Shown here: piece by piece, positions 1-60,516 of the stretch | Layout: each line of letters opens with the position of its first letter | Position numbering within the stretch: the first letter of the stretch is position 1 | From: an uncultured Planctomycetota bacterium | Lineage (GTDB): Bacteria; Planctomycetota; Planctomycetia; Gemmatales; HRBIN36 | Assembly: GCA_937944855.1 (NCBI GenBank) | Contig: CALFAY010000001.1 | Location: forward strand, 1 to 64,000 | DNA: 64,000 bases | Direction: 5' to 3' | Notes under the pieces: model-generated | What the model saw: only the letters and a program-made list of their open reading frames with translations | What the model was told of the DNA's origin: nothing | The model's database searches: none | Position numbers and translations under genes: made by a program

Positions 1-1310
1 GGGGGGGCCCCCCGTCCGGCGTCGCGGACTTCTTCCAACTCCCGGGCCAGTTGTTCGATGTCGATCTGATGGCGTGCGGCGATTTCCTTGGCCTTGGCCG
101 CCGCCACCTGCTCGCCGCTCTTGGCGATCAGCTCCCGCACCTGAGCCGCCTCGCTGTCCATGTTCAGGTCGAAATCCCGCACTTGCCGTGTCCATTGCCG
201 GTTGCGGTATTCCAGCCGGGCCAGAGCATCGGCTTCCTGGCTGCCGGAAAGCGGATATTCGATGACGCCGTCGCTTAGCAGCGGGAACGGCACTTCAGCC
301 CGGTCCACTCCGGCGATACTGAAGCGGACGAAGACGACGTTCTTGTAGGTGTCTTTGGTCCGGACCCGGCCGCGGGCATCGGTGGTCAGTTCTTCGGATT
401 GCAGGGCCTCGAACCCGCTGGGGAAGACCTTGACGCCGCAGCCAGCCAGCGGCTCCCGCGTGACGGCGTCCACGACCCGCAGTTGCAGCGGCGCGCGGGT
501 CGTGCCCAACTTCAATGCCCGATAGCCGAGGAGTTGTCGATCCGGCTTCGTTTTGATCGGATCGCGGTAGCGGCTGAACAGCCGGGTCGTGCATTCGCCC
601 TGGCGAACGTCGGAGACCACCAAGTAGGCGTCGGGAACGGGAATACCCTGCGGTTTTCCGTCTGGACCCAGGCGGATTTCGGAGAGGGCGAAGATCTCTC
701 CGGTGCGGACAGCCACCGATTCCGGATCGTTCAGTCCAGTACCTTTGAGAAGCAGTTGCACGGTGCGGATGTCCACTCGGCCGATCTGGCCGACCATGCC
801 GAAATCCTGGGCGATCGTCAACGCCACCAGGCGAGCCACCCAGGGACGGTCCGGCGTGTGTGCCTTGCGCAGCGGACTGACCAGGGCCGTCGAGCCGTCC
901 ACCTGCCGGGCCTGCACGGTGTATTGCCCCTCCTCGTAGCCGATCCGCACGAAGTGGACCTTGGTATCGTCAATGGTGTATTTGCGGTTGTCCAGCGTGC
1001 TCCAGCCGCGCTGAAGGATGTCCTGCATGAGCGGATGGTCCGGCTCCGCTTCGACCTTGCACAAGGCGCCGAGGTCGCGCTGAAGAGCGTCGCGGACTTC
1101 ATCCCGGACCCGGGCAGCGAACACGGGGGTCAGCAGCGGATGTGCGTCCACATGGATGACCAGTTTGAGTTGATAAGGAGCCTTGCTCCACTCCCCGACG
1201 GCGGCAGCGAAAGCGGCGGACGGTCCCGACGCCGGCGGCTGTTGACACCAAGCTGTCACCGGGACCAGGCCAAGGACGGCGAGAAGAATCGCGGCCAGCA
1301 CACGCTTCAT
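1..1310 (-). CDS. Secreted protein of unknown function, 3' end outside window
   Basis: The frame is open from an ATG at 1310 to the window edge, about 436 residues without a stop, so the C-terminus is missing. It starts with MKRVLAAILLAVLGLVPVTA followed by WCQQ, a Sec-type signal peptide. The middle part is polar with no motif I recognise. Around residues 300-370 the text (VVDAVTREPLAGCGVKVFPSG, then a Gly/Arg-rich turn) resembles carboxypeptidase-regulatory-like beta domains, which are common in secreted planctomycete proteins. The last visible part is Glu/Arg-rich and probably helical. The start lies 29 bp after the aroA stop on the same strand, so it is probably the last visible gene of the asd-truA-aroA operon. 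Function unknown; an envelope or extracellular role is inferred from the signal peptide only. Confidence 0.75.
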   Translation of the reverse strand, partial: MKRVLAAILLAVLGLVPVTAWCQQPPASGPSAAFAAAVGEWSKAPYQLKLVIHVDAHPLLTPVFAARVRDEVRDALQRDLGALCKVEAEPDHPLMQDILQRGWSTLDNRKYTIDDTKVHFVRIGYEEGQYTVQARQVDGSTALVSPLRKAHTPDRPWVARLVALTIAQDFGMVGQIGRVDIRTVQLLLKGTGLNDPESVAVRTGEIFALSEIRLGPDGKPQGIPVPDAYLVVSDVRQGECTTRLFSRYRDPIKTKPDRQLLGYRALKLGTTRAPLQLRVVDAVTREPLAGCGVKVFPSGFEALQSEELTTDARGRVRTKDTYKNVVFVRFSIAGVDRAEVPFPLLSDGVIEYPLSGSQEADALARLEYRNRQWTRQVRDFDLNMDSEAAQVRELIAKSGEQVAAAKAKEIAARHQIDIEQLARELEEVRDAGRGAP

Positions 1311-1339
1311 GATCGTCCTCTCGGAGGCAGGGCCGTTCG

Positions 1340-2635
1340 TCAGCGGCGAAGCTGTTCCAGATCGGCAAAGAACTCGGGATACGTCTTGGCCACGCACTTC
1401 GGATCGCGGATCGCCATGCCCGGACGCCGCAACCCCAGAAGCGCCAGGCTCATCGCCATGCGGTGGTCATTGTAAGTCTCGAAGACCGCTGGACGCAAGG
1501 GACGCGGCTGAATGGTCAGGCCGTCGCTGCGTTCTTCGACCTCGACGCCGGCCCGCCGCAGTTCCACCGCCAGGGCCGCCAGACGGTCGGTTTCCTTGTA
1601 GCGGATGTGGCCGACGTTGCGGATGGTCGTGGGTCCGTCTGCGAAACAGGCCACGGCGGCCAGGGTCATCACCGTGTCGCTGACGGCGTTCATGTCGGCG
1701 TCGATGCCGTGGAGTGGACCGCCGATGACGGTGATGCCCTGATCCGAGCGGACCACCTGGCAGCCCATCTGTTCCAGCAGATCGACGAAATGCACGTCGC
1801 CTTGCAAGCCATCATAAGGCAGATCGGCGACGGTGACGGTGCCTTCCGCGATCGCTGCTGCTGCGAAGAAGTAGCTGGCCGCGGAAGCGTCCGGTTCGAT
1901 CCGATACTCCTGGGGAGCGGAATGCGTGGGCCGATGCAGCACGAAGACCGGACCAGGCAGTTCATCCACCTGGTGGACGCCGAACTGTCGCAGCATCGCC
2001 ACGGTCATCGCAACGTAAGGCTGCGACACCAGCAGTCCGACGATCTCGATGCGGATCGGGCCGCGAGCCAGCGGCGCAGCCATGAGCAGGCCGCTGAGAA
2101 ACTGGCTGCTCGTGTCGCCCCGCAATCGCACCGTCCCGCCCGCCATGCCGCTTGCCTCGACGATCACCGGCGGACAACCGTTACCGTGCTCCGAGTATGC
2201 CTGCACTCCCATCTGCTGAAGCGCATCGAGGAGGTCGTACATCGGCCGTTGCCGCATCCGCTCCACGCCGTCGAGGCGATAGCGGCCTTTGCCCAGGGCG
2301 ACCATTGCGGTCAGAAACCGCATCGTCGTCCCCGAATTGGCACAGAACAAATCGGCCTCTTGAGCCGGGATCACGTCGGAGCCAGGCGGAAGGATGACGC
2401 GGATTTGATGGTGTTTCCAGTCAGCGTCGATGCCAAAGCCGAGATGCTTCAGGGCCTCGGCCATGATTTCGGTATCTTCGCTCCGCAAGGCTCCGTGCAG
2501 CCGGCACTCACGGTTGGCGTACAGAGCGGCCAGGACCATCGCCCGGTTGGTGATGCTCTTGGAGCCGGGCACCCGCACCACCGCCCGGGGAGGACGGTCG
2601 AGCGGCTGGATCGGCAGAGGATCGGGAAGGTTCAC
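1340..2635 (-). CDS. aroA: 3-phosphoshikimate 1-carboxyvinyltransferase (EPSP synthase)
   Basis: Cytosolic enzyme of the shikimate pathway that joins phosphoenolpyruvate to shikimate 3-phosphate. The 431-residue length is normal for the family. Visible signatures are the N-terminal substrate loop VPGSKSITNRAMVLAAL (about residues 22-38), a DASAASYFFAAAA segment near residue 245, a SDTVMTLA segment, and the C-terminal YNDHRMAMSLALLGLR with the DHRMAM signature. The start is GTG at 2635, which shares a GTGA overlap with the truA stop, so translation is probably coupled. It sits third in an asd-truA-aroA-secreted protein operon. Confidence 0.97.
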   Translation of the reverse strand: MNLPDPLPIQPLDRPPRAVVRVPGSKSITNRAMVLAALYANRECRLHGALRSEDTEIMAEALKHLGFGIDADWKHHQIRVILPPGSDVIPAQEADLFCANSGTTMRFLTAMVALGKGRYRLDGVERMRQRPMYDLLDALQQMGVQAYSEHGNGCPPVIVEASGMAGGTVRLRGDTSSQFLSGLLMAAPLARGPIRIEIVGLLVSQPYVAMTVAMLRQFGVHQVDELPGPVFVLHRPTHSAPQEYRIEPDASAASYFFAAAAIAEGTVTVADLPYDGLQGDVHFVDLLEQMGCQVVRSDQGITVIGGPLHGIDADMNAVSDTVMTLAAVACFADGPTTIRNVGHIRYKETDRLAALAVELRRAGVEVEERSDGLTIQPRPLRPAVFETYNDHRMAMSLALLGLRRPGMAIRDPKCVAKTYPEFFADLEQLRR

Positions 2636-3411
2636 GGCGATCTGTCCTCCGCCTGAAGCGGCCGTGCGGCCTGCGCATACTCGACCCGGACCAGGAACAA
2701 ACCCTGGGGCGGAGCGGTCGGGCCCGCCTGTCGGCGGTCATGGGCAGCGAGGATTTCCGCCATTTTCTCCACGGGCCAGTAACCGCGGCCGATGTTGACC
2801 AGCGTGCCGACGATGCTGCGGACCATGTTGTACAGAAAACCATCGGCTTCGACTTCGATCCAGAGCAGGTCGCCAAGTCGGCACACGCTCAGCCGCGTGA
2901 TGGTCCGAACGCTCGATTGCCGGTTCGGCCATTCAGTTTCAAAGCTGTGGAAATCGTGGGTGCCGACGAGCACCGACGCCGCCTGCCGCATGGCCTGAGC
3001 GTCCAATCTGCCGTAGGGAATGTGCCAGCAGTAGCGGCGGAGGAACAGATCGGGCACCTTGCCGTCGTGGAGGACGTAGCGATACAGTTTGCGGACGGCA
3101 TCACGGCAGGCGTCGAAATCAGACTCGGCCTCTTCGACGTCACGGATGACAACGTCGGTGGGCAGATGGGCATTCAGCCCCCGCAGCAGGACGCTGACCG
3201 GATGCCGGGTCTGGGTGCGGATGTTGACGACCTGGCCCAGAGCGTGGACGCCGGCATCGGTGCGTCCCGCGGCGTTGGCGAAGACCTTCTCGCCGGTCAG
3301 ATCCCGAAAGGCGGTTTCCAGCGTTTCCTGCACGGTCCGCTGGTTCGGCTGCGTCTGCCAGCCGTGGAAGTCGGTGCCCTCGTAGCTGACGACCAGTTTC
3401 AGGTTCCGCAT
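2632..3411 (-). CDS. truA: tRNA pseudouridine(38-40) synthase
   Basis: Isomerises uridines 38-40 in the anticodon arm of many tRNAs. The 259-residue protein opens with KLVVSYEGTDFHGWQTQ, typical for TruA, and carries the catalytic motif AAGRTDAGVHALGQVV with the conserved Asp near residue 53. A later FHSFETEW segment and the C-terminal FLYNMVRSIVGTLVNIG are also family hallmarks. It begins 3 bp after the asd stop and overlaps the aroA start by four bases, so it is the middle gene of this operon. Confidence 0.97.
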   Translation of the reverse strand: MRNLKLVVSYEGTDFHGWQTQPNQRTVQETLETAFRDLTGEKVFANAAGRTDAGVHALGQVVNIRTQTRHPVSVLLRGLNAHLPTDVVIRDVEEAESDFDACRDAVRKLYRYVLHDGKVPDLFLRRYCWHIPYGRLDAQAMRQAASVLVGTHDFHSFETEWPNRQSSVRTITRLSVCRLGDLLWIEVEADGFLYNMVRSIVGTLVNIGRGYWPVEKMAEILAAHDRRQAGPTAPPQGLFLVRVEYAQAARPLQAEDRSP

Positions 3412-3414
3412 GAT

Positions 3415-4455
3415 TCAGCGGGCCGGGGCGAGTTTTCGACCGACGCGGCCCCGGGCCAGAAGCGCCTCGGCGATTTGCACGGCGTTGGTGGCCGCTCCCT
3501 TGCGCAGGTTGTCGGCCACGACCCACAGATTCAGTCCATGCGGCACGGTCGGATCCTTGCGGATGCGGCCGACGAAGGTTTCGTCCCGGCCTTCGGCATG
3601 GATCGGCAGCGGCACGACGCCGGCGGCGTAATCGTCCAGCACGACCACGCCAGGGGCACGCCGCAGGGCTTCCCGTGCCTGTTCGACCGTGATCGGCTTG
3701 TAAAACTCGACGTTCACCGCTTCCGAATGGCCGGTGCGCACCGGCACCCGCGCCGTCGTCGGACTGACCAGGATGCTCTCGTCGCCGAGGATTTTCCGCG
3801 TCTCGCGGATCATTTTCCATTCCTCTTCGGAATAGCCATCCTCGCCGAGTTTCCAATCGTGCGGCAGCACGTTGCCGGCAAGCCGATCGCGATGGGCCTT
3901 GACCGGCGGCAGCGGTTCGCCCCGGCCCAACGCGGCGATCTGCGCGTCCAGTTCGCACAGGCCCGTCGCTCCCTTACCGGACGACGCCTGATAGGTGCAA
4001 ACGACGATCCGCTTGATGCGGGCCAGATCGTGCAGCGGCTTCAAGGCCACCACCATCTGGATCGTGGAACAGTTCGGATTGGCGACGATGCCCTTGGGAA
4101 TCCGGTCCAGAGCGTGCGGATTGACTTCGGGCACGACCAACGGCACGTCCGGATCCATCCGCCACGCACTCGAGTTGTCCACGACGATGGCCCCAGACCG
4201 GGCCGCGATCGGACTCCATTCCCGGCTGACCGAAGCAGGCGTGCTGGAAAGGACCAGGTCCACATCCTCGAACGCTTCGGGCCTCAGCGGCTCGACCTGA
4301 TAGGTCCGTCCCGCGAACTCCACCGGCTTGCCAGCGCTGCGTTCCGATGCGAGGAACTTGATGGACCGCAGCGGCACCCGCCGTTCGATCAGCAATTGCC
4401 GCATGACGCAGCCCACAGCCCCTGTCGCGCCAACAATCGCGATGCTTGGATGCAC
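3415..4455 (-). CDS. asd: Aspartate-semialdehyde dehydrogenase
   Basis: Makes aspartate semialdehyde from aspartyl phosphate for lysine/diaminopimelate, threonine and methionine synthesis. The dinucleotide-binding turn IAIVGATGAVGCVM is at the N-terminus, the active-site region GIVANPNCSTIQMVVAL contains the catalytic Cys near residue 130, and the later VPVRTGHSEAVNVEF segment carries conserved Arg and His. The frame is open up to 4506, but I choose the GTG at 4455: it gives a 346-residue protein with the nucleotide-binding strand at the right place, and GGGAG lies about 9 bases upstream. First gene of the operon with truA and aroA. Confidence 0.95.
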   Translation of the reverse strand: MHPSIAIVGATGAVGCVMRQLLIERRVPLRSIKFLASERSAGKPVEFAGRTYQVEPLRPEAFEDVDLVLSSTPASVSREWSPIAARSGAIVVDNSSAWRMDPDVPLVVPEVNPHALDRIPKGIVANPNCSTIQMVVALKPLHDLARIKRIVVCTYQASSGKGATGLCELDAQIAALGRGEPLPPVKAHRDRLAGNVLPHDWKLGEDGYSEEEWKMIRETRKILGDESILVSPTTARVPVRTGHSEAVNVEFYKPITVEQAREALRRAPGVVVLDDYAAGVVPLPIHAEGRDETFVGRIRKDPTVPHGLNLWVVADNLRKGAATNAVQIAEALLARGRVGRKLAPAR

Positions 4456-5213
4456 AGTCAGACTCTCCCACAAGATGGCTCCCGAATCGCCCTGGCAGCT
4501 TCGCATTGCCCCTGCCCGGCCTTTCGGTCAGCGCGCCACTAAGGAGATGGCTTAGGCTGGCCGTACCGCTTCGGCAAGTTGGAGCCGAGGTAAGCTCGCA
4601 TGGCAGCAGGGGACTCATCACGGCCAACGGAATGAACCGAAGCCTTTACTGTTCGACGGGCATGCCAAGGATGACCCAACCTGCGGGATCATGTTTATAG
4701 CCATGTTCGATTTTGAAGTCTGAGGACTTTGGTTCCACATGTTTGCGCCAGGTAAGGTTGCGTATATTGGCCTGACCGCACTCTGACTAGCCTTCTTAAA
4801 TCAAGCCGCCAGAACAGCGCAAAAATCGTCGCAACAACCAGCGCAATCGCGGGGACCGTAGTGAAGGCCAGAGTAGGAAGCTGATTAGGAATCCCTTGTT
4901 TTGTTAAAAAGATTCCGCACCGGGCTGAAATATGTACACAAATGAACTGTCCGAATTGGATTACAAAGCTGTCCGTTCTTGGCCGGAATTTTGCAAGTTT
5001 TGGACCCAAGAGACGCAGAAGCTGAAAGACTAAACCGGCTGCGGCTCGGCATCCCAATCGAGGCCGCGACGGGTGTCCGGACGCATTTTTTTCAGCAGCC
5101 GCTTGACACGGCCCGGGCAAGCGGTTCTACTAACTTAGCTTGGTCAGTGGAGGCCACGGGAGCATCGCACATGCCATCGTCACCCTGTTTGCGGCCTCCT
5201 TCGGCACTGCGAG
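4456..5213. other. Gene-poor stretch upstream of asd
   Basis: About 760 bp in which I find no convincing gene. It contains patches richer in A+T (around 4690-4980) than the flanking operons. A minus-strand frame at 4695-5120 contains one hydrophobic run but has no ribosome binding site and no recognisable family, so I did not call it. Together with the recombinase relic just after it, the stretch looks like decayed accessory DNA. Confidence 0.5.
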
Positions 5214-5422
5214 CGGTACTACGGCTATTACGGGTTGGTGATGCAAGCGATCACAGCTGCGGTACGCCGGGCCGGGCTATCCAAGCGGGCCGCCAGTCCT
5301 TTCGACTCAGTTTCGCCACCCCTTTGGTGGAACCGGGCCACGATATTGGCACCGTCCCAGAGTTGCTGGCGCATGAGGGTGTCAGCAGGACTATGATATA
5401 TAATCATATGTTAGCCCAATGA
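5214..5422 (+). pseudogene. Tyrosine recombinase (integron-integrase-like) C-terminal relic, frameshifted
   Basis: Two overlapping frames together read like the C-terminus of an XerC/integron-integrase-type tyrosine recombinase. The first frame gives [22 protein letters not shown], matching the segment before the catalytic box. The next part, in another frame, gives [20 protein letters not shown] and then [20 protein letters not shown]. These match the usual HTLRHSFATHLL..GYDIRTVQELLGH..V.TTMIYTHVL pattern, keeping the Arg and the catalytic Tyr but replacing the first His by Gln. The frame change is near 5300. No N-terminal part is visible upstream, so this is a truncated, inactive fragment marking an old insertion. 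The recombinase assignment is fairly safe; the integron subtype is an inference. Confidence 0.7.
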
Positions 5423-5482
5423 TGAGGTGACCGAACGAGACACTTACTAACCAGCATCGTCGCTCTTGTCTTTCTGAGCACA

Positions 5483-5755
5483 GTGCCCTCGGTCCTACAT
5501 GCCCAGCGGGCCGCTATTGAGTGGGAGATTCTCAACCAAGAGGTCCAGGAATTGTACCGTGCGGGCAAGTATGACCGCGCAGTGGTGGTCGCACAGAAGG
5601 CCCTACAGGTCGCCGAGAAGAATGTCGGCCCCGAACATCCCGCTGTGGCGACGAGCCTTGAGAATCTCGCGGCTTTGTATCGAGCCACAAATCGTGGTTC
5701 GGAGGCGGAGGCGCTGGAGCAGCGCGCGGCCAAAATCCGCGCCAAGAAGCGGTGA
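5483..5755 (+). CDS. Short TPR (kinesin-light-chain-like) protein, start region damaged or unusual
   Basis: The frame holds one clear TPR unit and part of another: LYRAGKYDRAVVVAQKALQV and then EHPAVATSLENLAALYRATN, the classic pattern of tetratricopeptide proteins. The same frame is open upstream to 5426 and reads like a hydrophobic signal peptide (LLTSIVALVFLSTVPSVLHA), but there is no ATG, GTG or TTG before the GTG at 5483, which falls inside that signal. A GTG at 5428 with a plausible beginning lies in another frame, so a small indel near 5440 probably separated the start from the body. It lies just after the recombinase relic. Role unknown; TPR domains mediate protein contacts. Confidence 0.5.
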   Translation: MPSVLHAQRAAIEWEILNQEVQELYRAGKYDRAVVVAQKALQVAEKNVGPEHPAVATSLENLAALYRATNRGSEAEALEQRAAKIRAKKR

Positions 5756-6191
5756 TGCCAACTGAGAACCAGTTGCAGCGGAGGGCACTTCGCAGCCCGC
5801 CGCTGACGCTGGGCGGGTAAGCTTACTTCGCCCCCGGCAGGGCGTGTAGCGGTTCTGAGATTCGCCGCTCACCTAGCCCTGCCGCGGTTGAGCGCTGTCG
5901 TTGCGCGACAACCATGGAAACAATCGGGCGATGGGCGAGGTTGTTGTACGGGCCGGTCGGGGCCGTGGCCATCGAGAGCGTGCCATCGCGGTCATCCTCG
6001 CCTGGGGCATCGGGGGAGCCGCCCGGAGGAGCGGCAAAAACGCCGTCAGTGTGACGTGCTTTAGCCGCCGCGACGCAGCATGAAGGCAGAACCAAGCGGA
6101 AGCGAAATGAAATGCGGAACAGGACGATTCTTGGCAATGCCTGGTTTTCCCAAGGATCTTGATCCGTGTCTGAAAATGAGCAAGCAGACAG
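5756..6191. other. Intergenic stretch between TPR gene and tRNA
   Basis: About 435 bp without a gene I can support. A short hairpin with arms CCCGCC (5796-5801) and GGCGGG (5812-5817) lies soon after the TPR stop but lacks a T-run, so it is not a clear intrinsic terminator. Small frames on both strands here show no family features. Confidence 0.45.
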
Positions 6192-6263
6192 TGGGACCGG
6201 CAGGATTCGAACCTGCAACCAAGGGATTATGAGTCCCCTGCTCTGCCGTTGAGCTACGGTCCC
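6192..6263 (-). tRNA. tRNA with anticodon CAU, probably tRNA-Ile2 (lysidine type), possibly elongator Met
   Basis: Read on the minus strand the acceptor stem is GGGACCG pairing with CGGTCCC, followed by discriminator A. The D arm contains AGCTCAACGGCAGAGC, the anticodon loop is CTCATAA (anticodon CAT), and the T loop is GGTTCGAATCC. CCA is not encoded. The anticodon arm and variable region (GACTCATAATC then CTTGGTTGC) look more like bacterial tRNA-Ile2 than elongator Met, but the assignment between the two cannot be settled by eye. Confidence 0.93.
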
Positions 6264-6417
6264 TTTTCTAACCAGTCATGCCATTCTCGGATCGGAAGTC
6301 AGGTCTTGGCCCGAGCGGCTTCGTCGCCGTTTGGCCTCGGCTCCCGAACCCGATCGGCACTTTTGACTGCGTTATGAAGAAGTATACAGCCCGCTGAGTG
6401 CCTTTTGAAACCTCCGC

Positions 6418-7650
6418 TCAAACCGTCGGACTTCGGCGGGGCCGGAGCATCAACATTACCATCCACACCACGCCCACGCCGCCGACTGCTGCTGCCGTGC
6501 CGAAGGCCGCCACCGGATAGCCGGCCTGAAGCAGATAGCCGACGTAGAAGCTCGACGCCATGTCGCCGATGGCGTTGGCACAAGCCAGAATTCCGAAGCC
6601 GAGACTCCGCAAGTCGCGGGGAAGCAGATCGGCGGCCACCGCTTTCTCCAGCGTTTCCTCGACGGAAATGTAAACGCCGGACAGGACGATGGCCGCTACC
6701 AGGATCGCCAACGCCTGTCCATGCACGGCCAGAAGCAGGTTCGTGAAGACGCCCAGACCGTAGCCGCCCACGAGAATCGGCATCTTCCGCCGCCGGTCGC
6801 CGAGCCAGCCGAATGGATAGGCACTGATGGCGCTGATGGCGTTGTGCATCATGTAGAGCAGCACGGCCACGGAGAGCGTCCCTGCTGCGGTCGTTTCCGT
6901 ACCACCCATGGCCTGGGCCGCCAAGAGCACCAGGAAAGTGCGGGAAAAATCACCCAGGCCGAACAGGATCACGCCGATGAGAAATAACCAGAAGCCCATC
7001 GGGAAGCGGGCCAGACTGGCGAAGGCAGAGGCGGGGGCGGAGTCGGCAGCGGGTTTGGCGGACCGCTCGCGGGTAAGGAAGAAGAAAAGGCTGGCCGCGG
7101 CCAACCCGGGCAAAGCCGTCCACAAGATGATGGAGCGGAACTCCCAGCCTGCCCACAGAAGCAGAGCGGCCAGAAGCGGACCCCCCACCGCCCCCAGCAT
7201 GTCGCCGGCTCGTTCCAGACCGTAAGCCCGGCCGTAATGCGTCGCTTCCACGGCGTCGGCAAGAAGGAAATCCCGCAGCGGCGAGCGGAAGCCGCGTCCG
7301 ACCCACGCCGCGCTGCGAAGGGTCAACACCGCCGCCAGACTGCCCACCAGGCCGATGCCGAACGTCCCCAGCGTCGTCACCAGATACGCGAGCGAGGCCC
7401 ACGGCTTTTTGTGCTGCACGTGATGTCCGACATAGCCGCCTAACAGCTTGGAAATGCTGACCAGAAAGTCGGCCGTGCCTTCGATCAACCCCAGGGCGAA
7501 CGCTCCCAGGCCGATGCCGGACAGGTAGAACGGCAAAACCGCCGTCGCCATCTCGTGACTGACATCGGAAAAGAACGTCGCCAGCACGATGCCCAGGACG
7601 GTGCGATTGATCCAGTGGAACCGGTGTGGGGGCTTGGAAAGGTTCATCAT
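6418..7650 (-). CDS. MFS transporter
   Basis: A 410-residue integral membrane protein with about twelve hydrophobic segments and no signal peptide. The short basic loop between early helices (GGYVGHHVQHKKPW) and the region WVGRGFRSPLRDFLLADAV fit the major facilitator fold, as does the repeat in the second half (YPFGWLGDRRRKMPILVGG). The substrate cannot be told from sequence. It starts with two consecutive ATGs at 7650/7647, 25 bp after the stop of the PHP-type hydrolase gene on the same strand, so the two are probably co-transcribed. It may import or export a product linked to that hydrolase, which is only inference. Confidence 0.9.
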   Translation of the reverse strand: MMNLSKPPHRFHWINRTVLGIVLATFFSDVSHEMATAVLPFYLSGIGLGAFALGLIEGTADFLVSISKLLGGYVGHHVQHKKPWASLAYLVTTLGTFGIGLVGSLAAVLTLRSAAWVGRGFRSPLRDFLLADAVEATHYGRAYGLERAGDMLGAVGGPLLAALLLWAGWEFRSIILWTALPGLAAASLFFFLTRERSAKPAADSAPASAFASLARFPMGFWLFLIGVILFGLGDFSRTFLVLLAAQAMGGTETTAAGTLSVAVLLYMMHNAISAISAYPFGWLGDRRRKMPILVGGYGLGVFTNLLLAVHGQALAILVAAIVLSGVYISVEETLEKAVAADLLPRDLRSLGFGILACANAIGDMASSFYVGYLLQAGYPVAAFGTAAAVGGVGVVWMVMLMLRPRRSPTV

Positions 7651-7675
7651 GGGCTTGTCGCTTGTCCGGGTTGGG

Positions 7676-9979
7676 TCAATCCCTGACGCATTCGGCGGCG
7701 ATTTTGCGATAGACCTCCAAAGCGGCGTCGTAGGCCGCCCGGGCTTCGGCTCGCTCCCGCTCCCGAATGCGAGGCGACTTCTCGTGCCAGCAGCGTTCGA
7801 TGGACTTCAGGCACCATTCAGCCGAGCGGCGGCTGGCCCGGATCGGCTGATCGTTGACCAGTACGAACACCGGGTTGGTGTGGCTCGACGGCAGAATTCG
7901 CAGGGCCACCCAACTGCTGATCTCGATGGGCACCTCGAACTCGACCACCTGTTCTGATCCTTCAGCCGTGATCTCCTTGCGAGCCACGGCGACGCCGTTG
8001 ACCACGAGTTCGACGGGAACTCGACGGGAATCGCCGATCCGTGCCCGCTCCAGGTCCCAGTAAGGTTTCTGCGTCCAGGGGGCGTTGCGGATGCGGTCAG
8101 TTTCCGGCGTTTGCCGGGGTTCCAGCAAAGCGACGACCACGGCCCGCGCGGTCACTTTCCCCGGACTCGTCAGACGCACTTCGCTGTCCTTCTGACCCAC
8201 GCCCAGGCCGTTGACCGTGAAATCCATCAGATGGCTTTTGCCGTCGCTGACGTAGCAGCGCCCTTTTTTGATTCCCTCAGCCCAGTCGTCGAAGTTGAGC
8301 GCTTTGCCGTCCAGATGGACATAGCTTCGGCCCAGACCTACCCGTTCTCCGTAGATGCACGGAAAGTCGGTCTCGCCGCTGATCCGACTGCGAAAGCCGC
8401 AGTTGAGCGTGTGATACCAGATGTTCAGCTCCCAGATGGCGGGCGTGTCCACCGTCGAAATGAAATCGCAGGCATTGTGGGCGAGGTCCACGAGATATTC
8501 GTTGGCTCCGATGCCGGCCATGCGGGGCACGACGTAGTTGGGCAACTCGCGGATGTCCTGCGGTCCCTCGGACGGTTCTAGGCCCCAGCCGCTATGGGCG
8601 AAACCGACCACCGCTCCCTGGCTCTTCGCCCAGCGAAGAATGGGCAGATCCCAACTTGGCCAGTCCTCAATGAGCTTGGTTCCGGGATAATCCTGCTCTC
8701 GCAACCGCAGCAGGCACAGATGGCCGCAATGACTTGACGGGAAGCCGGAGACTTCGACATCGTACCGCAGGATGTAATTCGGTTGCGAGAGAGGATGGGG
8801 TCGGCCCTCGAAGTAGCGTTTCTGATGATACCAGCACGGCCCCCAACTGAGTACGCAGCCGACGTTGAGGTCCTCGCCGAGGATGTGGCGCATCATGTCA
8901 GCAGGAGTGACGCCTTCGGTCGGGCTTTCGTAGTGAGCGCAGCCGGCAGCGTGGACGTGGTGATCTCCGCTGTACCACCCGCGGGCTGCGGGATGCACCC
9001 AGCGTTCCAGTCGGAAAGTCTCCAGGTGCATCGCGGCGTCCGGCACCGTGATGGTTTTCTTCTTGACGCGGTACTCCGGACCGCGGGTGTAGGTGACTTC
9101 GTAGGTGCCGGGCGGCAAGAGCACGCTTTCGCCGTCCTGCCGGTAGATCTGCGGGTGGAAGAAGAAATCCGGGGCGAGGCGTCGGCTCATGGCGGGATAG
9201 ACTCGGCCCTGAGAATCGCGGAAGGTGAACGCAGCCATGACCGGTTTGCCGTCGTCGTCTTTGACTTCGAGTTTGACCACCACCGCCGGGGCACATTCGA
9301 AAAGCACGTCGATCAGGTCGGACCGGGCGAGGGTTTCTGCCTCTCGTCTGGGTCCTCCACCGCGGCGGGTCAGGGCGAAACCGAGGCGGGCTTCCTTGCG
9401 ACCAGCATCACGGCTGTAGATCTGCAGAATGCGATACTCGACTTCCAATCCCGACAGCACCGGCAGGAGCGGCTGTTTGCCGAACATTTCCACGTCCAGG
9501 AAGCGGTTGGCGACCTCGCCGGCGCTGACGACCTTGGGAGCCGGATCGGCCGTGGATGGCCGATGCAGCGGAGCGGCATTGGGGCTGACAGCTTGCAGTT
9601 CCAGGCTGTGAACGCCGGAGGGATTGATGACCTTGACAAGAAACAACCGCCAGCCTTGCTGGACGAGACTCGGACGACGGGCCGGACCGGGCAGCACCTC
9701 GAGTTTGCGATCTTCACTGATGCGGACCCCGGCCAGGCAGAAAGGATCGAGCAGCCGTTGAATGGCGGCCGCGTCCTGCTCCTTGCACGCTGCTTCCAGA
9801 AGTTCCTTTCGCTCCGGGGGCATTGGTTCCCCGAGGAACTCCAGAGCGTCGGCGATGCGCTTGGCCTGGGCAGCAAGGGGTTGACCTTCGACCTGGGTCA
9901 CGACGGGCAACTCGGCCGCTGCTGTGCCGCACCACACGATCCACAAAACCACGCCTGCCCATATGCTTGACGGCTTCAT
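7676..9979 (-). CDS. Secreted CehA/McbA-like PHP-domain metallohydrolase
   Basis: A 767-residue exported protein. It begins with a signal peptide (MKPSSIWAGVVLWIVWCGTA, then AAEL). The first 330 residues are beta-rich and include a stretch (LLPPGTYEVTYTRGPEYRVK) like a carboxypeptidase-regulatory or Ig-type module. The PHP-like catalytic part starts near residue 335 with GWYSGDHHVHAAG, where the Asp and three His would bind metal. Later FAHSGWGL and ISGETDFPCIYGER also match CehA-type PHP proteins. The C-terminal 150 residues form another beta module and a charged helix. The family includes carbaryl and related esterases, but many members are uncharacterised, so no substrate can be claimed. 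First gene of a pair with the MFS transporter. Confidence 0.85.
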   Translation of the reverse strand: MKPSSIWAGVVLWIVWCGTAAAELPVVTQVEGQPLAAQAKRIADALEFLGEPMPPERKELLEAACKEQDAAAIQRLLDPFCLAGVRISEDRKLEVLPGPARRPSLVQQGWRLFLVKVINPSGVHSLELQAVSPNAAPLHRPSTADPAPKVVSAGEVANRFLDVEMFGKQPLLPVLSGLEVEYRILQIYSRDAGRKEARLGFALTRRGGGPRREAETLARSDLIDVLFECAPAVVVKLEVKDDDGKPVMAAFTFRDSQGRVYPAMSRRLAPDFFFHPQIYRQDGESVLLPPGTYEVTYTRGPEYRVKKKTITVPDAAMHLETFRLERWVHPAARGWYSGDHHVHAAGCAHYESPTEGVTPADMMRHILGEDLNVGCVLSWGPCWYHQKRYFEGRPHPLSQPNYILRYDVEVSGFPSSHCGHLCLLRLREQDYPGTKLIEDWPSWDLPILRWAKSQGAVVGFAHSGWGLEPSEGPQDIRELPNYVVPRMAGIGANEYLVDLAHNACDFISTVDTPAIWELNIWYHTLNCGFRSRISGETDFPCIYGERVGLGRSYVHLDGKALNFDDWAEGIKKGRCYVSDGKSHLMDFTVNGLGVGQKDSEVRLTSPGKVTARAVVVALLEPRQTPETDRIRNAPWTQKPYWDLERARIGDSRRVPVELVVNGVAVARKEITAEGSEQVVEFEVPIEISSWVALRILPSSHTNPVFVLVNDQPIRASRRSAEWCLKSIERCWHEKSPRIRERERAEARAAYDAALEVYRKIAAECVRD

Positions 9980-56422: not shown

Positions 56423-59400
56423 ATGAGGCCCACCGTCCTTCCATCGCCTGAACAACCTCGGGCCACCGGCTCGTCCGACGAACCGCTTGTGCCTTGCCCC
56501 GGCAGCGCTCTCCAGGACCGGACCGACGCTCTGGGAGGAGCGGCCCACCGGCCCCAGGCAGCTTCCGGGTCGCGGCCGGATACCTCGGATCGGCTGGCCG
56601 ATTCAGACTCGGAACTTACCGGAGCGGATACCTTATGTGCCGTGCTGTGCGGCGTCGTGCCACCCTGCCCAGCGGCGGAGATTTTCAGCCCGGCGACTTG
56701 GTTTGATCCTGCGCTGACCCCGGCACAGCAGCAGGCGGTGCGGCAAGCCGTGGCCGTCGAAGACCTCTTCCTTCTGGTCGGCGCGCCGGGCACGGGTAAA
56801 AGCCGCGTCGTGGCCGAGATCGCTGCCCAGGCTGCCTCCCAGGGACAACGGGTGCTGGTGACGGCCCCGAAAGCCGCGCCCCTGGACGCCTGCCTGGAGC
56901 GTCTCCAGAACTATCCCGCCATATCGGCCGTCCGCTTGCTCGCGCCCCACGAGGAAACCAATCCTTCTGCCGGACCTGCGCGGAATTGGTGCCTGGAACG
57001 TCAGACGGCCTGCCTGCGGCAGCGCTGCCGCGAACAGGCCGCCCAGCAACTGGCTGCCTGGCAGCAACGCGGCCAGACCTTGCAAGAAGAAGCCCGCCTC
57101 GTTCTCGAACTGCGTCAACTCGCAATTCGGCGGCACGAACTGGACGAGCAACGCGAGCGCTTGAGGAATGGAGCGGACAACAATCCGCCAGCGCAGACGG
57201 AGAACCCATTAAGGGCCGATCCCCGCAGCTTGGCTGCCGAATGTGAGCGATTGCTGGCGGAGGAGGAAAAACGCCACTTGGCCACGCTGAACGACTTGGA
57301 CCAGCGGATTCAGCAAGCCCTCGAAGCCTGCCGTCAAAAGGAGCAGGAGCACGTGGCCTGGCTGGCTCGGGTCCGGGAACAGGAACTGGTCGTGCAGACC
57401 CGCAAGGTTTGGAAGCCATTCAGCCTGCGGTTCTGGGCGTGTTGGCTGCAAGGCCGAGCTCCCCAGCGGTTGGAAGAATTCCGGCAACGTGCTGAGGAAG
57501 CCGAAGCTGCCGTCCGCGAAGCCTGCGGGGAGCTGGACGCCCTCCGCCAGCAGCGACTGGCCGCTGAGCAACGCCACCAAGTCGCCTGTCAACAAATCCT
57601 CGCCGACGAGGCGGCCCGCCGACAGGCCGAGTTGGACGCCCAGCTTGCCCGGCTGGACGAAGTAGCCGAACAGGTCAACCGTTTGTGGAACGAGTGCCGA
57701 GGGCGCTTCTGCCAGCCACAGCGGGTTCCGCCTTTTCCGTCCCGCGAAGCTGTGGAGGCGGTCGAAACGGCGAGGCAAAAGGCCCTGGAAGAACAGGCAG
57801 CGTTCCAACGTTTCTGGAGCGGCTGGCAAAGCGAGTTGGCGAGGGATGCCAGCGACTGGCTGGCCTGTTTTGCCGTCGTGGCCGCTCCGGCAGAAGTCGT
57901 CCTGAATTCCGAACGGCTTCTGCCTGGCGAAGGCGACTATGATCTGGTCGTTATTGAACAGGCGGATCGCCTAAGCGACGGCGAGCTGCTGGCCCTGGCC
58001 CGTCGAGGCCGACGCTGCGTCCTGGTCGGCCTGCCGCCCTGGCCGACCGATCCCGACCCGGCCCAGTCCGCTTCCGCATTTCATCGCGCTTGGCATCGGC
58101 TTCACCCGATGCTCAAGCACCGGGACTGCCACTGGCTTGAAACGGATTCCGAGATCGTCTGCCAACTGGCAGCCCTGACGGAACTGGACCGACGCCGACT
58201 CGAAGCCGAACCGCTCGCCGATCATCCCGAAGTGGAACTCCGCATCCTTCCCGGCCCGACCGGCCGACCCATCCTCGCTGAGGTCGCTTTTCCTCACGCC
58301 TCCTTTTCCATCGCCCAGTCCAAGGGCTTTCTCTACCGTCAATTGGGTGAACTTCCACTCCGCCCCGAATCAGAAGCGTGGTCCTGGTCGCAATCCGATT
58401 CCCTGGTGGTCCTCGAGCTTTCCGAGGATCTCGAGGACTCCCGGTCTCACGTCGATTCCGTCCGGTTGGAACTGGAACCAGGGATTGTCGAGGTGGTAGT
58501 CCGCTGCCCGGTCGAGAACGAGCCTGTTCCCGCCGCCCAATGGCGGACGCAACGGTTGGAGTTCTCGCGGCTGGCGGGCTGGGACGTTTCCTCGGTGCAG
58601 CGCTGGCTGAGCGAACGGCTCGCCCTGGTTCCGCCCGGGTCGGCTCGTGGCGTTTCCCCTGCGTTCCTGGATATGCGGCGGACCAACTGGCTGGCCAGAA
58701 ATCTTCGTGCCGAACGGCCGCTGGCCGAGTTCGTTCATGCTTGCTGGGCGGTCCCATCCGTTCGGGTCTCCCGAGCGGAGTCCCGCCACGAACCGCCTCC
58801 GCTGCGGCTGGAAGCGGTCGGCGGTGCGTGCTCGCCGCGGACCTCCAGCAAGACGCCCAAGGGCCGCCGAGCCAGCGATCCGCCGGCGACCCTTCCGATC
58901 GACCTCTCTGATCCGCGGCAACGGCAACGTCTGCCGCTGGAACTGCAACTGAAGCTGCCGATGCGCGGTCAGGTCAATCCTGCCGAAGCGGAACACATCG
59001 TCGCCTTGCTGAGCCGCCAAATCGGGCAAAGCAACGGCATGAATTGCACACCGGCATCTTGCGCCGTGCTCTCGTGGGCTGAGCCGCAACTGCTGCTTAT
59101 GGAGCACTTATGGCGAAAATCGGCTCCCGCTGACGGCGCTCATGTCGTCTTCGCCACGCTGTCGGCATTTCGCGACCGGCAAGCTGATGTCGTGCTGGTC
59201 AGCCTGGTTGCCAGTCCCGCTGTCGTCGCCACGCCCCTCGCGGAACATCCCGCCGACTGGTGGACGATGCTGGGGTCGGCCCGTCGGGAGGTGATCCTCG
59301 TCGGGGACCCGGCGGCTCTGGCTCGGCGGGCGGAAGCAGAAGCGACCGCGGATGCGTTCGAGAACCCGCTGCACCGGTTGGAACGGGAGCTGTGTCGCCG

Positions 59401-59473
59401 ACTGCTCCGCGAACTGGGCGTTCCGCTGGGCAAAACCAGCGGTGTTGCCGTCGCTGAGGATTATCGCCCATGA
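56423..59473 (+). CDS. SF1 (UPF1-like) helicase/ATPase homologue with degenerate Walker B and long coiled coil
   Basis: A 1016-residue protein. Walker A is LLVGAPGTGKSRVVAEIAAQ near residue 122, and preceded by LTPAQQQAVRQAV as in UPF1-type helicases. After a coiled-coil region rich in Gln, Glu and Arg (about residues 190-430) comes YDLVVIEQADRLSDGELL near 510, where the family has DEA(S/Q): here EQAD, so the Walker B acid is changed. The C-terminal RecA-like part has FRDRQADVVLVSLVASPAVV near 915 and SARREVILVGDPAALARR near 955, matching motifs V and VI region, with the expected Arg finger area altered. The last part of the N-terminus is low-complexity. The stop overlaps the next gene in ATGA, so the two are coupled. 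A role in nucleic-acid handling or defence is possible but unproven. Confidence 0.85.
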   Translation: MRPTVLPSPEQPRATGSSDEPLVPCPGSALQDRTDALGGAAHRPQAASGSRPDTSDRLADSDSELTGADTLCAVLCGVVPPCPAAEIFSPATWFDPALTPAQQQAVRQAVAVEDLFLLVGAPGTGKSRVVAEIAAQAASQGQRVLVTAPKAAPLDACLERLQNYPAISAVRLLAPHEETNPSAGPARNWCLERQTACLRQRCREQAAQQLAAWQQRGQTLQEEARLVLELRQLAIRRHELDEQRERLRNGADNNPPAQTENPLRADPRSLAAECERLLAEEEKRHLATLNDLDQRIQQALEACRQKEQEHVAWLARVREQELVVQTRKVWKPFSLRFWACWLQGRAPQRLEEFRQRAEEAEAAVREACGELDALRQQRLAAEQRHQVACQQILADEAARRQAELDAQLARLDEVAEQVNRLWNECRGRFCQPQRVPPFPSREAVEAVETARQKALEEQAAFQRFWSGWQSELARDASDWLACFAVVAAPAEVVLNSERLLPGEGDYDLVVIEQADRLSDGELLALARRGRRCVLVGLPPWPTDPDPAQSASAFHRAWHRLHPMLKHRDCHWLETDSEIVCQLAALTELDRRRLEAEPLADHPEVELRILPGPTGRPILAEVAFPHASFSIAQSKGFLYRQLGELPLRPESEAWSWSQSDSLVVLELSEDLEDSRSHVDSVRLELEPGIVEVVVRCPVENEPVPAAQWRTQRLEFSRLAGWDVSSVQRWLSERLALVPPGSARGVSPAFLDMRRTNWLARNLRAERPLAEFVHACWAVPSVRVSRAESRHEPPPLRLEAVGGACSPRTSSKTPKGRRASDPPATLPIDLSDPRQRQRLPLELQLKLPMRGQVNPAEAEHIVALLSRQIGQSNGMNCTPASCAVLSWAEPQLLLMEHLWRKSAPADGAHVVFATLSAFRDRQADVVLVSLVASPAVVATPLAEHPADWWTMLGSARREVILVGDPAALARRAEAEATADAFENPLHRLERELCRRLLRELGVPLGKTSGVAVAEDYRP

Positions 59474-60516
59474 GCGCCGGTTCTCCCGCAAGCCCGCAGA
59501 TCGCTGGGCTGGTGCGGCACTTGCAGCCCCCGCCCGATGCCGCCTTGTGGGTCGGAACGCTGCGAATCCATCGGCTCCAGGCGACCGTCCCCGTGGCCGA
59601 CGAGCGCCCCGCTCTACCGGAACTAGGCGTCCTTCGGGCCGTGCGGGTGTTGGGGTCCGCCACGACCGTTGAACTAAGCGAACTGATCGGCATTCCGCTC
59701 GCCAGCTTGGTCCGACGGCTCGGTGAACAAGGCATGCTGACGGCGGATCCCACCGGCCGCTGGCGGCTGACCCCGCAGGGACAGCGCCAACTCGACGAGC
59801 CGCAAACTTCGTGGCCGCGGTGGCAACGCCGGAAGTTCCATTTCTTGCACCATCCGGACGGCCGACCGCGCTACATAGCCTTGACCGTGTCCGGCCCCGG
59901 CCCCCTGGCGGAGCCTCAAGGCCGGGGCAGCGAGCCGAAACCGTCGGACCTCGACGCCCCGGCCCTTGCCGAAGCGCTTGACCACTGTATCCAGCAGTCC
60001 GGCGACTGGAAGCGTCTCCATCGCTTCCCACTGGAGGTGCGCCGGATGGTTCCGGACGCCCCAGAGCCTTGGGCGGGAGCCGCGCCGCGTGGGTGCCGAC
60101 CGGCTGCCGTCCGCAACGAACAGTACAGTCTGGCCGTCGTCCTCCACAAGGACGGGCTGTACGCCTTCCTGGCCAGTCCCCTCACCTGGACCCTGGCGGT
60201 TAGAGACCCGATTCTTAGCCTGACCAGCCGAGATGCCGTCGCAGAGACGTTCGGCGAACTCCTGGCCGACCCGGATCCCGAAAGCTGGCACGCGGCCTGG
60301 CGGGGCTGGTGCCAGGCTCGAGGCATCCCGTTGCCGGAGGCCTCCGGCATCCATATTCAGCGTCGCGGCTTGACCCTGGTAGTGTCCGGGCATCCGTTGC
60401 GGCCAGAACGTCTGCGGGCCTTGACGATGGACGAGGAGAACTGGCTCCTGGCCGGTACGGGTCCGCTCCGGTGCGCCGCCCGGCTGGAATTTGGCCGACC
60501 TTCCCCCCATCCCTGA
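59470..60516 (+). CDS. Winged-helix protein coupled to the SF1-like gene
   Basis: A 348-residue protein. A winged-helix domain is likely at about residues 50-105: ELGVLRAVRVLGSATTVELS ELIGIPLASLVRRLGEQGML TADPTGRWRLTPQG, with a typical recognition helix and wing. After it comes WQRRKFHFLHHPDGRPRYIA and a hydrophobic C-terminal domain without a known family. A short insert (residues about 140-155) is encoded by an inverted repeat (59894-59928). The ATGA overlap with the preceding gene suggests the two proteins are made together and may act together, the winged helix giving DNA binding or partner contact. Function not known. Confidence 0.8.
   Translation: MSAGSPASPQIAGLVRHLQPPPDAALWVGTLRIHRLQATVPVADERPALPELGVLRAVRVLGSATTVELSELIGIPLASLVRRLGEQGMLTADPTGRWRLTPQGQRQLDEPQTSWPRWQRRKFHFLHHPDGRPRYIALTVSGPGPLAEPQGRGSEPKPSDLDAPALAEALDHCIQQSGDWKRLHRFPLEVRRMVPDAPEPWAGAAPRGCRPAAVRNEQYSLAVVLHKDGLYAFLASPLTWTLAVRDPILSLTSRDAVAETFGELLADPDPESWHAAWRGWCQARGIPLPEASGIHIQRRGLTLVVSGHPLRPERLRALTMDEENWLLAGTGPLRCAARLEFGRPSPHP
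59894..59928. repeat. GC-rich inverted repeat within the winged-helix gene
   Basis: GCCCCGGCC (59894-59902) and GGCCGGGGC (59920-59928) are perfect 9-bp arms with a 17-base loop. The segment encodes a Pro/Gly-rich stretch (GPGPLAEPQGRGSEP) that looks inserted between two ordered domains. Confidence 0.6.

What the first reader, a model, noticed from the sequence alone, without database searches (positions are those of the whole stretch)
56423..60516. Coupled pair: SF1/UPF1-like ATPase with altered Walker B plus winged-helix protein
The 1016-residue protein has a complete Walker A (GAPGTGKS) and UPF1-type flanking text, but its DEA box reads EQAD and a long coiled coil splits the first RecA-like domain. 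The ATGA overlap with a winged-helix protein of no known family indicates a two-component device. I know no described system with this pair. It could be a repair, RNA-quality or phage-defence module; this is the best candidate here for something undescribed.
Basis: partly seen in the sequence, partly recalled or inferred. Interest (0 to 1): 0.65.

Follow-up and report, generated by a model that had tools for sequence, protein, structure and literature searches.

The report
Tamed defence helicase in Gemmatales bacteria
Two neighbouring genes in a planctomycete descend from a known type of antiviral helicase system, but here the helicase has lost key energy-using residues, gained a domain with no known relatives, and become a one-copy chromosomal gene in most of its bacterial order, so an immune motor seems to have been turned into an ordinary cell part of unknown job.

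Summary
A 1016-aa SF1/UPF1-like protein (Walker A intact, Walker B EQAD) overlaps by ATGA a 348-aa winged-helix protein. The helicase family carries an inserted domain of about 185 aa, between motifs III and IIIa, with no match in Pfam or the PDB. The insert occurs in 74/102 genomes of the order (Gemmatales), one copy in 72, and in 0/293 other genomes of the phylum. It holds 13 of the 14 (nearly) invariant residues of 61 aligned members. The ATPase is dispensable: only 1 of 29 members with a P-loop has a canonical DE box, and 31 others have lost the P-loop, most with the whole second RecA domain. dN/dS is 0.15-0.26. EQAD is a lineage variant; basal members keep DEA. The closest relative without the insert (100/99 support) is a helicase + winged-helix + PLD-nuclease operon of Mokosh type; the family falls with MkoA, not with IGHMBP2-like paralogues. 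The partner is found in 29 order genomes, 27 of them insert-positive, and lies next to the helicase in about 19. Best reading: a Mokosh-derived, nuclease-less, domesticated pseudo-helicase/ATP-switch pair of unknown cellular target. Not a phage-defence island, not Mokosh proper (no PLD, no kinase). Biochemistry is untested.

The parts
56423..59473 (+). Helicase-derived protein P0001, 1016 aa: SF1/UPF1-like fold with altered ATPase motifs
   Evidence: ORF; Pfam AAA_11 4e-13; AlphaFold model pLDDT 82.9, best PDB matches IGHMBP2, Aquarius, SETX, UPF1
56780..56803 (+). Walker A GAPGTGKS (residues 120-127), intact
   Evidence: alignment
56993..57835 (+). Long helical coil splitting RecA1 (residues about 191-471)
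   Evidence: secondary structure of model
57947..57967 (+). Walker B position VVIEQAD (residues 509-515); canonical form is hhhDEA
58103..58678 (+). Orphan inserted domain (residues about 561-752) between motif III and motif IIIa; the best conserved part of the family
   Evidence: 13 of 14 (nearly) invariant residues of 61 members lie here or at its border
58973..59338 (+). RecA2 remnant with motifs V and VI (residues about 851-972)
   Evidence: dN/dS 0.13 against L031
59264..59308 (+). Motif VI position TMLGSARREVILVGD (residues 948-962); the arginine of the canonical LTRAR is lost
59470..60516 (+). Partner P0002, 348 aa: winged helix plus a C-terminal domain of unknown fold; ATGA overlap with P0001
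   Evidence: A1/A3/A4 alignments; model pLDDT 87.6
59614..59799 (+). MarR-like winged helix of P0002 (residues about 49-110)
   Evidence: Foldseek vs PDB, best 3vb2 E 8e-3 over about 70 columns; HTH matches in relatives

Best explanation
The pair is a domesticated descendant of a Mokosh-type (MkoA helicase + MkoB winged-helix/PLD) defence module. Shown by sequence: a canonical SF1 helicase with an adjacent winged-helix partner and a PLD nuclease (seen in G051) is sister to a Gemmatales-specific family that gained an orphan domain of about 185 aa, has no recognisable PLD gene beside it, and then lost ATPase residues, in many lineages the whole P-loop and RecA2, and often the partner. Inferred: the protein no longer works as a processive motor. 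It acts as a nucleic-acid-binding scaffold or slow ATP switch: ATP binding to the intact Walker A closes the RecA domains on a single strand, the E-to-Q position and missing arginine finger slow or stop hydrolysis, the orphan domain docks the real cellular effector, and the winged-helix partner adds duplex binding or target choice. The cellular target is unknown; a chromosomal upkeep role (DNA or RNA metabolism) is more likely than phage defence.
For: Tree: insert family + L077 100/99, insert family alone 100/100, both among MkoA-like helicases and split 100/100 from IGHMBP2-like paralogues. L077 operon: helicase 1015-5337 with GPPGTGKT, DEAG, RMHP and SRAQ, partner 5342-6616 (MkoB 6.8e-12), PLD nuclease 6591-8105 (PF13091 3e-18; MkoB PLD half 1.5e-9). 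The A1 profile, built without L077, finds the L077 partner at 8e-41. Insert: no Pfam or PDB match, 0/293 outside the order (own genome E 3e-53), 74/102 inside and one copy in 72. Motif table: P-loop kept in 29/60, canonical DE in 1 of those 29. Full-length and truncated members share the same upstream transglutaminase-type gene in 34 loci, so they are orthologues. Helicase dN/dS 0.15-0.26, truncated forms included, so they are not pseudogenes. No relative of the L077 PLD protein by phmmer among ORFs of the family loci. Precedents for pseudohelicases: D. radiodurans PriA (PMC4504706), Utp25 (PMC9539457).
Against: No biochemistry: EE or ED boxes may still hydrolyse ATP, and RecA2 of the window protein is under strong constraint (dN/dS 0.13, dS saturated). 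The G051 sister operon is a single genome and could itself have been acquired sideways. The link of P0002 to MkoB by profile alone is weak (E 1.3e-4, winged-helix part only). The link between ATPase loss and partner loss (P-loop 21/29 vs 3/31 with partner, Fisher p 8e-7) rests on about 4 tree changes and is not significant in independent pairs. Gene neighbourhoods give no functional clue.
Confidence: 0.55

Rival explanations
1. An active housekeeping SF1 helicase (DNA repair or RNA handling) with a tolerant Walker B; the inserted domain is an accessory substrate-binding domain and P0002 its DNA-binding cofactor.
For: Walker A intact in 29/60 members, acidic residues kept as ED/EE in 16 of those 29, motif VI arginine kept in 16 of the P-loop-bearing members; RecA1a and RecA2 strongly constrained in the window lineage.
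Against: About half of the family (same locus in many) lacks the P-loop, nearly always together with RecA2, yet stays under purifying selection, so ATPase activity cannot be the shared function. The window protein itself has EQ, no motif III and no motif VI arginine.
Confidence: 0.2
2. A still-functional antiphage system: a reduced Mokosh variant that recruits a nuclease encoded elsewhere.
For: Descent from a Mokosh-type operon; some MkoA-like relatives in the order sit in defence neighbourhoods (L072 next to HsdR and HsdS).
Against: Single copy in 72 of 74 positive order genomes and none outside it in the phylum sample; shared chromosomal locus; on plasmids only P-loop-sized generic matches and no P0002 match in phages; housekeeping neighbours (leuC, leuD, purL by reading the sequence; inositol monophosphatase); loss of ATPase and partner in many lineages.
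Confidence: 0.12
3. A decaying relic under way to loss, without function.
For: Stepwise loss of P-loop, Walker B, RecA2 and partner; absence from several genera such as g13, g14, g18 and g20.
Against: dN/dS 0.15-0.26, truncated forms included; strict conservation of the insert in 74 genomes.
Confidence: 0.04

Closest known systems
Mokosh type I antiphage system (MkoA + MkoB), PADLOC PDLC03920/PDLC03922
   Same: SF1 COG1112-type helicase core with a neighbouring winged-helix partner gene; best PADLOC hit for both proteins; grouped with MkoA-like helicases in the tree
   Different: No PLD nuclease, no kinase domain, ATPase motifs eroded, ~185-aa orphan insert, vertically kept single-copy locus instead of a defence island
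IGHMBP2/UPF1/SETX/Aquarius SF1B helicases
   Same: Overall fold (Foldseek 4b3f E 7e-12) and two RecA domains with an insertion in RecA1
   Different: Altered Walker B, motifs III and VI; insert between III and IIIa; separate branch from bacterial IGHMBP2-like paralogues
Pseudohelicases (D. radiodurans PriA, PMC4504706; yeast Utp25, PMC9539457)
   Same: Helicase-derived protein with degenerate motifs kept by selection
   Different: Different helicase families; here one order shows a graded series from DEA-bearing to P-loop-less members, with a new domain; activity not yet tested
G051 operon L077 (helicase-winged helix-PLD)
   Same: Homologous helicase and homologous partner, adjacent
   Different: Canonical motifs, no insert, has the PLD nuclease gene, next to a CARF-AAA (RtcR-like) regulator and an SNF2-type helicase fragment

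Membership tests
Mokosh type I | COG1112-type SF1 helicase, MkoA-like | tested here: met
   PADLOC MkoA 4.5e-19 for P0001, 8.5e-105 for sister L077; tree places the family with MkoA-like helicases. Meets ancestry, not activity.
Mokosh type I | PLD-family nuclease in the partner | tested here: not met
   P0002: no PLD in Pfam or by fold; no homologue of the L077 PLD protein in family loci by phmmer (single-sequence sensitivity).
Mokosh type I | serine-threonine kinase domain (definition from PMC11672841) | tested here: not met
   No kinase match in P0001.
Mokosh type I | canonical helicase motifs (Walker B DE, motif VI R) | tested here: not met
   EQAD and LGSAR in the window protein.
Mokosh type I | defence-island, patchy distribution | tested here: not met
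   One copy in 72 of the 74 positive order genomes, conserved locus in many, housekeeping neighbours.
Mokosh type I | phage protection | not testable with these tools
   Needs a plaque assay.
SF1B UPF1-like helicase | UPF1-like two-RecA fold | tested here: met
SF1B UPF1-like helicase | ATP hydrolysis and unwinding | not testable with these tools
   Motif losses make it doubtful.
Pseudohelicase | degenerate catalytic motifs with selection for function | tested here: met
Pseudohelicase | no ATP hydrolysis or unwinding | not testable with these tools
   Needs purified protein.

The most novel reading that the evidence does not exclude
An antiphage helicase module was exapted early in Gemmatales into a core chromosomal component whose working part is a newly acquired orphan domain; the motor was then stripped away independently in several lineages, down to proteins that keep only the scaffold and the new domain.
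Probability: 0.4. Interest if true: 0.78.

Novelty: new variant of a known kind. Interest (0 to 1): 0.6.

Why it matters
Domestication of bacterial immune machinery into core cell biology is much discussed, but stepwise examples are few. Here one order holds the series: a defence-type operon with nuclease (G051), a DEA-bearing member with the insert (L151), altered pairs (window) and P-loop-less scaffolds (Gemmata-type genomes). It also defines an orphan protein domain restricted to Gemmatales in the genomes searched here, an order known for unusual cell architecture, in a family whose truncated members occur in cultured strains, so its function can be tested directly.

Tried and rejected
EQAD as a conserved functional signature: rejected, only 4 members have EQ, in two separate lineages. 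Phage-defence island: rejected for this locus. P0002 as full MkoB: rejected, winged-helix part only. Partner genomic context in genomes where it is unlinked: no conserved neighbour. Statistical link between ATPase loss and partner loss: strong by genome count, not significant with independent pairs on the tree (the P-loop labels were wrong through a faulty pattern and were redone). Insert homologues in Pfam and PDB: none. The L072-type partner profile found nothing elsewhere in the phylum sample, and that search had no positive control in its set.

Full report
Observation. Motif III (VGLPP) and the motif VI arginine (LGSAR for LTRAR) are also lost. AlphaFold gives a UPF1-like protein (pLDDT 82.9; best PDB matches IGHMBP2, Aquarius, SETX, UPF1). 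The partner models well (pLDDT 87.6), but only its winged helix resembles anything solved.

Family. The genome belongs to Gemmatales: the nearest public relative, 55% identical, is 'Gemmatales bacterium SKYG27', and nearly all of the 23 loci found in a scan of 84,980 species carry Gemmatales, Gemmataceae or other planctomycete names. In 102 genomes of the order the helicase family is widespread. Alignment shows a block of about 185 residues inserted between motif III and motif IIIa: the QYRMHP-type motif reappears after it in L152 and L151. This insert, with its C-terminal border, holds 13 of the 14 invariant or nearly invariant residues of 61 members. It matches nothing in Pfam or the PDB, is found in 74/102 order genomes (60 of 71 good ones), in one copy in 72, and in 0 of 293 genomes from the rest of the phylum (the window's own genome served as control).

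Erosion. Of 60 members with readable P-loop regions, 29 keep the P-loop. Their Walker B reads ED 9, EE 7, EQ 4, DD 4, QE 1, LQ 1, LD 1, LE 1 and canonical DE once. In the others the P-loop is gone, usually with all of RecA2, the protein ending right after the insert. Full-length and truncated genes share an upstream secreted transglutaminase-type gene in 34 loci, so they are orthologues. dN/dS of 0.15-0.26 in helicase pairs of both kinds excludes simple decay.

Partner. P0002 homologues (profile E below 1e-20) occur in 29 order genomes. 27 of these also carry the insert; the other two, G376 and G381, are 74-75% complete. The partner lies next to the helicase in about 19 genomes and elsewhere in the genome in 7. 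Outside the order only generic winged helices were found. Members with a P-loop have the partner in their genome in 21/29 cases, those without in 3/31 (Fisher p 8e-7), but this is only about 4 independent changes on the tree and does not survive a test on independent pairs.

Origin. PADLOC's best hits are MkoA for P0001 and MkoB for P0002. The family's sister without the insert, L077 in genome G051, is an operon of canonical helicase, homologous partner and PLD nuclease, next to a CARF-AAA regulator and a fragment of an SNF2-type helicase. A tree with MkoA-like proteins from genomes whose MkoB matches PDLC03922 and with IGHMBP2-like paralogues puts L077 plus the family (100/99) on the MkoA side (100/100), with the DEA-bearing L151 at the base of the family. 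So DEA is most simply ancestral and EQAD derived. No relative of the L077 PLD protein was seen beside family genes.

Mechanism. Inferred, not shown: the window protein binds ATP and nucleic acid but hydrolyses poorly or not at all, the insert is the docking or effector surface, and P0002 adds duplex or target binding. Because truncated orthologues manage without P-loop, RecA2 and partner, the shared function must lie in the coil, the RecA1 scaffold and the insert. Pseudohelicases with retained roles are known (PMC4504706, PMC9539457).

Membership. It descends from a Mokosh-type module, but it is not Mokosh: the PLD nuclease, kinase, canonical motifs and defence-island distribution were tested and not met; phage protection was not testable. 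The definition used is that quoted in PMC11672841.

Limits. Large-group searches score only some candidates per genome (2, 12). Many genomes are draft MAGs. The L077-type operon is known from one genome. Whole-complex folding and biochemistry were not available.

Noticed in passing
L072:4613-11550, also L073, L074, L075 (genomes G008, G018, G048, G056): A second module with a canonical MkoA-like helicase (1138-1236 aa, PADLOC 1e-111 in L072 and L073), an adjacent winged-helix protein of 354-372 aa and an upstream gene that in L072 has an FGE-sulfatase domain behind a hydrophobic N-terminus; in L072 it lies beside type I RM genes, in L075 beside a protein matching TIR-effector models. No PLD gene seen; its partner profile was not found elsewhere in the phylum sample. 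May be an undescribed defence module.
   Followed up: partly
L077:1-10346 (genome G051): SNF2-type helicase fragment, MkoA-like helicase, winged-helix gene, PLD nuclease and a CARF-AAA (RtcR-like) regulator on the opposite strand: looks like a Mokosh/Azaca-like hybrid defence locus with MkoB split into two genes.
   Followed up: partly
L199 (JAIXLE010000115.1): A record titled 'Bacteroidales bacterium UW1SPNA076' carries a Gemmatales family locus; probably a mislabelled MAG.
   Followed up: no
34 loci, e.g. L032:10816-12363, L084:10890-12731: A secreted transglutaminase-core protein of about 510-620 aa lies directly upstream, same strand, of most non-window family members; possible functional link.
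   Followed up: partly
window 56423-56605: The first ~61 residues of P0001 are predicted disordered and poorly conserved; the annotated start may be too far upstream.
   Followed up: no
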